From Clavibacter michiganensis (GTDB lineage: Bacteria > Actinomycetota > Actinomycetes > Actinomycetales > Microbacteriaceae), in the NCBI GenBank assembly GCA_002150995.1, contig MDHJ01000001.1:1364001-1428000 (forward strand): DNA of 64,000 bases, read 5' to 3'. The notes beneath the pieces are model-generated. The model was given only the letters and a program-made list of their open reading frames with translations, did not search any database and was not told where the DNA came from. Each line of letters starts with the position of its first letter. The stretch's first letter is position 1. A program made the translations under genes and the position numbers. Of this stretch, positions 1 to 64,000 are shown piece by piece.

Positions 1-1292
1 ACGGCGAGCCCGATGATCGCGCCGGCCGTGGCCATGCGGTGGTCCTCGTACGCGCGCCAGGGCCCGCCGTGCAGCGGTGCCGGCGTGACCTCGAGGCCGT
101 CCTCCAGCTCGGTGACGGATCCGCCGAGCCCGGTGATCTCCGCGGCGAGAGCCGCCAGGCGGTCCGTCTCGTGTCCGCGGAGGTGGCCGATGCCGGTGAT
201 GCGGCTGGGTCCGTCGGCCAGGGCCGCGAGGGCGACGAGCGCGGGCGCGAGCTCGCCGCCCGTGCTGAGGTCGAGGTCGACCCCGGGGATGCGGCCCCCG
301 GCGGCGAGGCCCGGGCCGCCGTCGACGACGAGCGCGTCGCCCTCGCGGGTGACGGTCGCGCCGAAGCGCGGCAGGAGGTGCGCGAGGTCGGCGCCGACCT
401 GGGTCGTCTCCCGGGGCCAGCCGGGGACGGCCACGCGGCCGCCGGCGACGATCGCCGCCGCGAGGAACGGCGCGGCGTTCGACAGGTCGGGCTCGATCCG
501 CACCTCCCGACCGGCGATGGGCGCGGACGGCACGATCCAGAGACCGGGCTCCGGGCTCTCGACCACGACGCCGCGCTCGGCGAGCGTGCGGATCGTCATC
601 GCGATGTGCGGCATGCTCGGCAGCGACGTGCCCGTGTGGCGGAGCCGCAGCCCCTCCGCGAAGCGCGGCGCGGCGAGCAGCAGCCCCGAGACGAACTGGC
701 TCGACGCGGAGGCGTCGATGCCGATCTCGCCGCCCGGGACCTCGCCCGTCCCGTAGAGGCTGAAGGGGAGCGCGCGCCGGCCGTCGTCATTGACGTCCAC
801 CCCGAGGGCTCGGAGCGCCTCGATCGTGCCCGACATGGGGCGTCGGCGCGCGCTCGGATCCCCGTCGAAGGAGACGGGGCCGAGGGCGAGGGCGGCCACG
901 GGGGGCAGGAAGCGCATGACGGTGCCGGCGAGCCCGCACTCGATGGTGACGCCGCCCGCGAGCTCGGCCGGCGTGATGCGGAGGTCGGGTCCGAAGGCCC
1001 CGTCGCCGTCGATCTCGTCGATGACGGTGCCGAGCGCGCGCAGCGCCTCGATCATGAGGCTCGTGTCGCGCGAGCGCAGGGGCGCCCGGAGGATCGAGGG
1101 GGAGTCCGCGAGGGCCGACAGCACGAGCTCGCGGTTGGTCAGGCTCTTGGATCCCGGCAGCGGCACCGTGGCGTCGAGCGGGCCGTCGGCCACCGGCGCC
1201 GCCCAGGGGCCGTCGTCCGTCGGGACCGGCTGGTGCGTCCGGTCGTCGTCGTACGGGCTGAAGGTCGGACCGGAATACCTGAAGATCTCCAT
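1..1292 (-). CDS. aroA: 3-phosphoshikimate 1-carboxyvinyltransferase (EPSP synthase), 3' end beyond window
   Basis: Sixth step of the shikimate pathway: transfers enolpyruvate from PEP to shikimate-3-phosphate in the cytoplasm. About 430 codons are visible from an ATG at 1292, and the reading frame stays open to the window edge, so only a short C-terminal piece is missing. The family signature LPGSKSLTNR lies at about residues 45-54 and EDHRM lies close to the left edge. The gene is divergent from the sigH-type sigma factor, an arrangement known from other actinobacteria. A sigma-H/R-type promoter for the divergent gene lies directly over its start codon. Assignment is secure. Confidence 0.95.
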   Translation of the reverse strand, partial: MEIFRYSGPTFSPYDDDRTHQPVPTDDGPWAAPVADGPLDATVPLPGSKSLTNRELVLSALADSPSILRAPLRSRDTSLMIEALRALGTVIDEIDGDGAFGPDLRITPAELAGGVTIECGLAGTVMRFLPPVAALALGPVSFDGDPSARRRPMSGTIEALRALGVDVNDDGRRALPFSLYGTGEVPGGEIGIDASASSQFVSGLLLAAPRFAEGLRLRHTGTSLPSMPHIAMTIRTLAERGVVVESPEPGLWIVPSAPIAGREVRIEPDLSNAAPFLAAAIVAGGRVAVPGWPRETTQVGADLAHLLPRFGATVTREGDALVVDGGPGLAAGGRIPGVDLDLSTGGELAPALVALAALADGPSRITGIGHLRGHETDRLAALAAEITGLGGSVTELEDGLEVTPAPLHGGPWRAYEDHRMATAGAIIGLA

Positions 1293-1297
1293 GGGTT
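1272..1297 (+). promoter_or_regulatory. SigR/SigH-type promoter (GGAAT-N18-GTT)
   Basis: GGAAT at 1272-1276 and GTT at 1295-1297 are separated by 18 nt, matching the consensus recognised by Streptomyces SigR and mycobacterial SigH (GGAAT, 18-19 nt spacer, GTT). It points toward the sigma-factor gene starting at 1423, which implies autoregulation. It overlaps the first codons and start of aroA on the other strand. The match is seen in the sequence; its use is inferred. Confidence 0.7.
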
Positions 1298-1408
1298 CAC
1301 CAGAGTACCGGGCAGACGTCCGGCAGGCCCGGACCCCGGGCCGGGAAGGATCACCCGTGATCACGAGGACAGCACCGGCGGCCCCGTCCGCCGAGCTCGT
1401 GCGCGCCG

Positions 1409-1414
1409 TAGAAT
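1409..1414 (+). promoter_or_regulatory. -10 box (TAGAAT) for leaderless sigH transcript
   Basis: TAGAAT ends 8 nt before the ATG at 1423, and no Shine-Dalgarno sequence is visible. This is the spacing expected for a leaderless vegetative promoter and would give a second, constitutive start in addition to the GGAAT/GTT element upstream. Confidence 0.5.
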
Positions 1415-1422
1415 CTGCCTTG

Positions 1423-62464: not shown

Positions 62465-62473
62465 CGACGGACC

Positions 62474-62797
62474 ATGGATGACGACGAGTTCGAGGACTAC
62501 GACCGCGAGGTGGAGCTCGCGCTCTACCGGGAGTACCGGGACATCGTGTCCCAGTTCAAGTACGTGGTCGAGACCGAGCGGCGCTTCTACCTCGCGAACG
62601 AGGTCGAGCTGGTGCGTCGCGACACGGAGCACGACTTCTACTTCGAGCTGAGCATGACCGACGTGTGGGTGTGGGACGTGTACCGCTCCGACCGCTTCGT
62701 CAAGTCCGTGCGGGTGCTCACCTTCAAGGACGTCAACGTCGAGGAGCTGTCGGCCAAGGAGTTCGAGCTCCCCAAGGAGCTGGCGATCGACGAGTAG
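62474..62797 (+). CDS. DUF2469 family protein
   Basis: Highly conserved actinobacterial protein of 107 residues, rich in acidic and aromatic residues (DEFEDYDREVELALYREYRD, FKYVVETERRFYLANEVEL, FYFELSMTDVWVWDVYRSDR). Always found near rnhB and yraN. No known function. Confidence 0.93.
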   Translation: MDDDEFEDYDREVELALYREYRDIVSQFKYVVETERRFYLANEVELVRRDTEHDFYFELSMTDVWVWDVYRSDRFVKSVRVLTFKDVNVEELSAKEFELPKELAIDE

Positions 62798-62906
62798 GGC
62801 TCCTCCGGGTCCCTCCCCAGGGTGCGCCGCGCATGGCGCCGCACCTCGTGGGGTCGATGAGCGGGACGCATCCCGGCGGCAGCGCATCCTGCCCTCGGAG
62901 GTGCGC

Positions 62907-63263
62907 ATGACACGCGAGCACGACCTGGGACGACGCGGCGAGGAGCTCGTCACACGGCATCTGATCGACCACGGCTACGCGCTCGTGGAGCGCAACTGGC
63001 GGTGTCGCGAAGGCGAGATCGACCTCGTGATGACGCATGGGGGCACGACCGTCCTGGTGGAGGTCAAGACGCGTGCGGGCCTCGGCTTCGGGCACCCCCT
63101 CGAGGCGGTGACGCGCGCCAAGGCCGCGCGGCTGCGGGTGCTGGCGGGGCTCTGGTGCGCGGCCCACCCGGAGCGTCGCGGGCGCGTGCGGATCGACGTG
63201 GTCGGCGTGGTCTGGCCGCGCGGGGGACGGCCGTCGATCGAGGTCGTGCGGAGCGCCTGCTGA
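62907..63263 (+). CDS. YraN family (UPF0102) endonuclease-like protein
   Basis: Protein of 118 residues with the Holliday-junction-resolvase-like nuclease fold: LGRRGEELVTRHLIDHGYAL, WRCREGEIDLVMTHGGTTVL and VEVKTRAG, which contain the acidic and Lys metal-binding residues (E...D...E-x-K). The ATG at 62907 is preferred over a GTG at 62901 because GGAGG lies 5 nt upstream. Its stop overlaps the comM start. Confidence 0.9.
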   Translation: MTREHDLGRRGEELVTRHLIDHGYALVERNWRCREGEIDLVMTHGGTTVLVEVKTRAGLGFGHPLEAVTRAKAARLRVLAGLWCAAHPERRGRVRIDVVGVVWPRGGRPSIEVVRSAC

Positions 63264-64000
63264 TGGCCGTCGGTCGCACGCTCGCGGTCGCGCTCTCGGG
63301 ACTCGAGGGGGCGCTGGTCGACGTCGAGGCGGACATCACCAGCCAGCTCCCCGGGTTCGTGCTCATCGGCCTCCCGGACGCGGCGCTGAGCCAGGCCCGC
63401 GAGCGCGTCCGCGCCGCGACCGGCAACGCGGGATGCGAGTTCCCCGTACGCCGCGTCACCGTCAACCTCTCGCCGGCCGTGCTGCCCAAGCACGGGTCGG
63501 GCTTCGACCTCGCCATCGCCCTGGCGGTGCTCGCGGCGGGCGGCTCCGTCTCCGCGGAGTCGGTCGCCGGCACGGTCCACCTGGGCGAGCTGGGGCTCGA
63601 CGGGCGGCTCCGTCCGACGCACGGCATCCTCCCGGCGGTGCTCGCCGCGAGTCGAGCGGGTGTGCGGCGCGTCATGGTCCCGCGCTGCCACGCCGACGAG
63701 GCGTCCCTCGTGCCCGACGTGAACGTCATCCCGGTGTCGGGGCTGCGCGACGCGGCGATCCACCACGGGGCGGAGCTCGACCCGGAGCCCGACGACGTCG
63801 TCGGGCCGGCGGTCGCCGCATCGAGCGTCGGGGAAGCGCGGCCCACCGGGGACGTGGGCGCCCCGGAGCCGTGCCTGGGGGACGTCGTCGGCAACGAGGA
63901 GGCGGTGGAGGCGCTCGTCGTCGCCGCGGCGGGCGGCCACCACATGTTCCTCCTCGGCCCGCCCGGGGCCGGCAAGACGATGCTGGCCCAGCGGCTCCCG
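63263..64000 (+). CDS. Mg chelatase-like/ComM (YifB) AAA+ ATPase, 5' part only
   Basis: The first 246 codons of a gene that runs past the right edge. N-terminal domain: GRTLAVALSGLEGALVDVEA, LPGFVLIGLPDAALSQARER, RVTVNLSPAVLPKHGSGFDL, then the start of the ATPase domain with VVGNEEAVEALVVAAAGGHH and Walker A LLGPPGAGKTMLAQRLP at the edge. ComM helicases act in natural transformation and branch migration. In actinobacteria the gene is usually followed by dprA. The ATG overlaps the yraN stop (TGATG). Confidence 0.92.
   Translation, partial: MAVGRTLAVALSGLEGALVDVEADITSQLPGFVLIGLPDAALSQARERVRAATGNAGCEFPVRRVTVNLSPAVLPKHGSGFDLAIALAVLAAGGSVSAESVAGTVHLGELGLDGRLRPTHGILPAVLAASRAGVRRVMVPRCHADEASLVPDVNVIPVSGLRDAAIHHGAELDPEPDDVVGPAVAASSVGEARPTGDVGAPEPCLGDVVGNEEAVEALVVAAAGGHHMFLLGPPGAGKTMLAQRLP

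What the first reader, a model, noticed from the sequence alone, without database searches (positions are those of the whole stretch)
1..64000. Sixteen single-base losses break fifteen conserved genes: systematic indel error in the sequence
sigH, kgd, the histidine kinase, metY, tetR, murA, gpsA (twice), thiL, DUF58, tgpA, recG, DUF177, smc, the GCS2 ligase and map each lose frame once. In every case adding exactly one base restores a full-length family protein, and nearly all sites are G or C runs of 3-6 (2060, 6364, 18724, 21214, 23612, 30582, 34739, 37956, 38662, 41804, 48781, 56349, 59642). All changes are losses, none gains, at about one per 4 kb, while intergenic hairpins and other genes look intact. 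murA, gpsA, map and smc cannot all be dead in a living cell, so this is most simply homopolymer under-calling.
Basis: partly seen in the sequence, partly recalled or inferred. Interest (0 to 1): 0.75.

Follow-up and report, generated by a model that had tools for sequence, protein, structure and literature searches.

The report
Sequencing errors that break genes
About a quarter of the genes in this stretch of a plant-associated bacterium's genome look broken by single missing bases, but the pattern shows these are almost certainly reading errors in the deposited sequence and not dead genes.

Summary
The window is a Clavibacter chromosome. Compared with congener genes, 14 of 58 genes lose frame, against 0 of 47-55 in each of four congeners with the same reference; other references gave controls of 0 to 4. 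All are, modulo 3, one base short; in tgpA the alignment is complex.

In 24 further 20-kb stretches of the same genome, 49 of 213 comparable genes are broken. In all, 53 of 53 net frame changes away from gene ends equal one loss modulo 3, 42 of them a lone one-base gap. Losses rise with G/C run length, from 0.16 to 65 per 1000 runs. Sequence after the breaks still evolves like an intact gene. murA and smc are broken in their only full copies. Completeness is 92.3%, against 99-100 in 17 congeners.

This is homopolymer under-calling in an assembly, a known artefact. No reads were available; the platform is inferred.

The parts
1513..2180 (+). sigH-type ECF sigma factor gene, frame lost once
   Evidence: TIGR02947 on the congener copy
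3011..6828 (-). kgd (multifunctional 2-oxoglutarate decarboxylase/dehydrogenase), frame lost once
   Evidence: NF008907 on the congener copy
17689..18833 (-). sensor histidine kinase gene, frame lost once
   Evidence: PF02518, weak MacS-like match
21065..22434 (-). metY-type O-acetylhomoserine sulfhydrylase gene, frame lost once near its 3' end
   Evidence: NF005872
23405..24069 (-). TetR-family regulator gene, frame lost once
   Evidence: PF00440 and PF17920
28256..29625 (+). murA, the only copy found in the genome, frame lost once
   Evidence: NF006873/TIGR01072
30540..31547 (+). gpsA, frame lost twice (start approximate)
   Evidence: one PF07479 match in the genome; NF000942
34175..35331 (+). 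thiL (thiamine-phosphate kinase), frame lost once (seen with 3 of 4 references, and with G002)
   Evidence: NF004351
37198..38531 (+). DUF58 protein gene, frame lost once
   Evidence: PF01882
38528..41061 (+). tgpA-like transglutaminase gene, frame lost near its start; 1-4 gaps in the alignment, net equal to one loss only modulo 3, placement uncertain
   Evidence: PF11992, PF01841
41058..43240 (+). recG, frame lost once
   Evidence: NF008167 (under that model's cut-off)
43777..44348 (+). DUF177 (now YceD) gene, frame lost once
   Evidence: PF02620
47569..51299 (+). smc, the only full copy found in the genome, frame lost once
   Evidence: TIGR02168
55596..56746 (-). GCS2-type glutamate-cysteine ligase gene, frame lost once (seen with 3 of 4 references, not among the G002 sites)
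   Evidence: NF010042
59031..59770 (-). map (type I methionyl aminopeptidase), frame lost once; a second full-length copy lies elsewhere in the genome
   Evidence: TIGR00500

Best explanation
The breaks are consensus errors of the assembly. Short G/C runs were called one base too short, most likely in a long-read-only assembly that was not fully polished. The living cell very probably carries intact genes. Shown here: one-sided losses, dependence on run length, genome-wide spread, near absence in congeners, unrelaxed evolution after the breaks, and broken sole copies of murA and smc. Inferred: that reads would show the longer runs, and that the platform was a long-read one.
For: 53 of 53 net frame changes (14 in the window, 39 elsewhere, those within 30 nt of gene ends dropped) equal one loss modulo 3; 42 are a lone one-base gap. 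Rate by run length in the reference gene, per 1000 G/C runs: length 1 0.16, 2 0.13, 3 0.84, 4 3.3, 5 14, 6 65 (2 of 31), 7 or more 0 of 1. 32 of 42 single-gap sites have a G/C run of 3 or more within 4 nt, against 23.9% of random positions (P 1.4e-12). Congener controls: 0 of 47-55 broken genes with G008 as reference. Third-position share of substitutions: 0.72 in intact genes, 0.71 in the shifted part and 0.68 in the unshifted part of broken genes. murA appears only as two adjoining pieces in different frames; so does smc, apart from one weak partial match of 19.9 bits elsewhere. Completeness is 92.3% against 99-100% in 17 of 17 congeners. Papers: homopolymer-length errors are called the commonest residual error of long-read-only bacterial assemblies (PMC8812927, abstract seen); in one studied assembly most indel errors are false deletions, tied to runs of 2-8 and most often 4-5 bases (PMC12007338, passages seen).
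Against: No reads or second assembly of this strain were available. 24 of the 42 single-gap sites align to a reference base in a run of only 1 or 2; gap placement beside substitutions may explain part of this, but some errors are not simple run shortening. 10 of 42 have no G/C run of 3 within 4 nt. Bulk run-length spectra show no shortage of long runs against congeners, so the error is sparse. One cluster of the gain kind, at a gene's 3' end, is seen with three references. Raw one-base gaps private to a single relative are not rare in the cheap-gap blastn alignments (51 lacks and 68 extras in coding sequence over five relatives), so raw gap counts do not discriminate; only net frame does. 63 genes are called broken but only 53 net sites pass the end filter, and I did not resolve the difference.
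Confidence: 0.96

Rival explanations
1. The losses are real mutations in a mutator lineage or a decaying genome; the genes are truncated in the cell.
For: The frame changes are in the sequence as deposited. Slippage in runs is also how real indels arise (established knowledge).
Against: About 23% of comparable genes would be dead (63 of 271), including the only murA and smc. Real slippage should give gains as well as losses (established knowledge), but 53 of 53 net changes away from gene ends are of the loss kind. Shifted parts show no relaxed constraint.
Confidence: 0.02
2. The cell tolerates the frame changes by ribosomal or transcriptional slippage, so that full-length proteins are still made.
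For: Runs are slippage-prone (established knowledge), and codons after the breaks remain constrained.
Against: With G008 as reference none of 47-55 genes in each of four congeners needs it. The enriched short words among those shown all contain a run of three or more G or C, and nothing was significant at the 10 non-run sites. DNA outside the mapped genes shows the same bias, 10 lacks to 2 extras, for which slippage in gene expression offers no reason.
Confidence: 0.01
3. The losses were introduced after sequencing, by a faulty polishing or file-handling step, and not by base-calling.
For: Would also be genome-wide and one-sided.
Against: The rise with run length fits base-calling or consensus better. 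Cannot be separated without reads.
Confidence: 0.01

Closest known systems
Homopolymer-length errors in long-read-only bacterial assemblies (PMC8812927, abstract seen; PMC12007338, passages seen)
   Same: Single-base deletions dominate, concentrate in short homopolymers and fragment many genes across the genome.
   Different: Here 38 of 42 missing letters are G or C. The Kastor example, with 59% GC, had more A/T-run errors. The GC content of 71-78% here and the scarcity of A/T runs would account for this.
Pseudogenes of host-restricted bacteria (recalled)
   Same: Frame-broken conserved genes.
   Different: No net gains away from gene ends, no relaxed constraint after breaks, sole copies of murA and smc hit, congeners intact or nearly so.

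Membership tests
Homopolymer under-calling in an assembly | Losses greatly outnumber gains | tested here: met
   53 of 53 net changes away from gene ends are of the loss kind modulo 3; 17 of 18 well-supported window clusters with gene ends included
Homopolymer under-calling in an assembly | Rate rises with run length | tested here: met
   0.16 to 65 per 1000 G/C runs, lengths 1 to 6
Homopolymer under-calling in an assembly | Genome-wide and blind to gene function | tested here: met
   49 of 213 genes broken outside the window; sole full copies of murA and smc hit
Homopolymer under-calling in an assembly | Non-run sequence mostly spared | tested here: inconclusive
   32 of 42 sites near a G/C run of 3 or more, but 24 of 42 align to a reference run of 1-2
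Homopolymer under-calling in an assembly | Reads carry the longer runs | not testable with these tools
   no reads held
Pseudogene decay | Relaxed codon constraint in the broken gene | tested here: not met
   third-position share 0.71 after breaks against 0.72 in intact genes
Pseudogene decay | Indels in both directions | tested here: not met
   0 gains of 53 net changes away from gene ends; one gain-kind cluster at a gene end
Programmed frameshifting | A shared slippery motif, with the frame change conserved in relatives | tested here: not met
   no word beyond the G/C run among the top words shown; congener genes are in one frame, 0 of 47-55 broken with G008 as reference

The most novel reading that the evidence does not exclude
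The short runs are real and the organism lives with hundreds of single-base losses, some in indispensable genes, by a general frame-restoring slippage of transcription or translation.
Probability: 0.01. Interest if true: 0.95.

Novelty: not a real feature. Interest (0 to 1): 0.08.

Why it matters
63 of its 271 comparable genes look broken, so gene-loss, pseudogene and pan-genome statements that rest on it would be wrong. Any first-stage finding in this genome that reads a frameshift as biology should be discounted.

Tried and rejected
A first gene caller based on G+C by codon position gave low coding fractions (0.64-0.77) and chose doubtful frames; it was replaced by one trained on codon usage. 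A first sample of other stretches with few matching congener stretches gave only 53 genes and was enlarged. A search for a motif that might mark modified bases at non-run sites found nothing significant (only 10 such sites, so weak). Bulk run-length spectra did not separate this genome from congeners. Literature searches gave no paper that I could tie to this assembly (listings and abstract starts only). One listing, PMC4424300, reports a Clavibacter genome from PacBio data alone; I did not open it. I did not try to name the strain. The query was a mechanical reading frame of which, by my later gene calls, only the last part (25260-26096) is in a gene's frame; its best named hits are still five Clavibacter records at 82-84%.

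Rows dropped before counts: genes with coverage of 60% or less, identity of 70% or less or 80% or less, and genes running off a stretch; net sites within 30 nt of gene ends. Six of the 24 extra stretches had no comparable gene in the congener stretches fetched. The G015 target region covers only 51 of 64 kb.

Full report
What the window is. The window is bases 1364001-1428000 of a single-contig chromosome of 3,268,273 bases. The best named hits of one of its reading frames are five Clavibacter records at 82-84% identity. Seventeen other genomes of the genus were found, with 89-94% DNA identity over a 2-kb test piece, G002 matching only part of it. GC is 71-78%.

Checking the observation. I trained a codon-usage gene caller on five congeners and aligned the genes of four of them to the window, following the frame through each gene. 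With G008 as reference, 14 of 58 genes in the window are out of frame for at least 60 nt; for four congeners as targets the figures are 0 of 54, 0 of 55, 0 of 47 and 0 of 55. Other references give 14 of 58, 15 of 59 and 17 of 58 for the window. In their 12 control comparisons, 8 give 0, and the others give 1 of 46, 1 of 47 and 4 of 46 (all for the partly diverged G015) and 1 of 55. G002, a sixth congener, as reference gives 15 of 57 in the window, 2 of 68 in G008 and 0 of 70 in G001.

The first gpsA break was at first cut off because my caller trimmed that gene's start; with the start extended, the gap is seen against 4 of 4 references. Of 18 clusters seen with three or four references, 17 are of the loss kind modulo three and one, at the 3' end of the gene at 35362-35946, is of the gain kind. 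The tgpA site is a cluster of gaps in which the window is longer overall, so it equals one loss only modulo three. Names were confirmed on the copies of a congener. The histidine kinase matches only general models, and recG falls under the cut-offs of its best models.

Beyond the window. In 24 further 20-kb stretches, 18 of which had comparable genes, 49 of 213 genes are broken, with 39 net changes of the loss kind and 0 of the gain kind, gene ends left out. Window and stretches together give 63 of 271 genes broken and 53 of 53 net changes of the loss kind in 257 kb of aligned coding sequence, or about one per 4.9 kb; 42 of the 53 are a lone one-base gap. Of the 16 stretches (window included) with at least five comparable genes, 14 hold a break. 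The genome's completeness is given as 92.3%, that of all 17 congeners as 99-100%.

Dependence on runs. Losses per 1000 G/C runs of the reference gene are 0.16 (length 1), 0.13 (2), 0.84 (3), 3.3 (4), 14 (5) and 65 (6; 2 of 31); the one run of 7 or more was not hit. In this genome 32 of 42 single-gap sites lie within 4 nt of a G/C run of three or more, against 23.9% of random positions (P 1.4e-12). In the window it is 15 of 16 within 6 nt, against 39%. Results against a pure run model: 24 of 42 sites align to a reference base in a run of 1 or 2, 10 of 42 have no G/C run nearby, and bulk run spectra look normal. The significant words around the sites, among the top six shown per word length, all contain a run of three or more; nothing is significant at the 10 non-run sites.

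Is it decay? Substitutions per codon position are 0.049, 0.038 and 0.225 in intact genes; 0.051, 0.041 and 0.228 in the shifted parts of broken genes; and 0.063, 0.050 and 0.238 in their unshifted parts. The shifted parts have therefore been under much the same constraint as intact genes. A real break would have to be extremely recent at all sites at once.

Indispensable genes. A genome-wide search finds murA only as two adjoining pieces in different frames, and smc likewise apart from one weak partial match. The gpsA C-terminal domain has one match. That murA and gpsA are needed for growth, and smc for normal growth, is established knowledge, not tested here.

Non-coding DNA. In the window, single-base differences shared against at least four relatives are 10 lacks and 0 extras inside mapped genes, and 10 lacks and 2 extras outside them. 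Gaps private to one relative are common in these alignments (coding: 51 lacks, 68 extras over five relatives), so raw gap counts mean little; the net frame does the telling.

Verdict. The pattern is that of homopolymer under-calling in a consensus assembly, a well-described artefact (PMC8812927, abstract seen; PMC12007338, passages seen). The single contig and the error profile point to a long-read-only assembly; the platform is inference. I see no new biology here, but the assembly should not be used as it stands to argue gene loss.

Noticed in passing
   Followed up: no
35362-35946: At the 3' end of this minus-strand gene three references show a net change of the gain kind modulo 3, the only such well-supported cluster in the window; probably variation of the gene end.
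   Followed up: no
59031-59770: The genome holds a second, full-length type I methionyl aminopeptidase gene at G000:C1:2898902-2899648.
   Followed up: partly
1-64000, outside the mapped genes: Single-base differences shared against at least 4 relatives are 10 lacks to 2 extras, so the bias is also present outside genes.
   Followed up: partly
53834-54300: In G002 the 2-kb test piece matches only up to about 53833, at 94% against 89-91% in the others; the rest is diverged or absent there.
   Followed up: no
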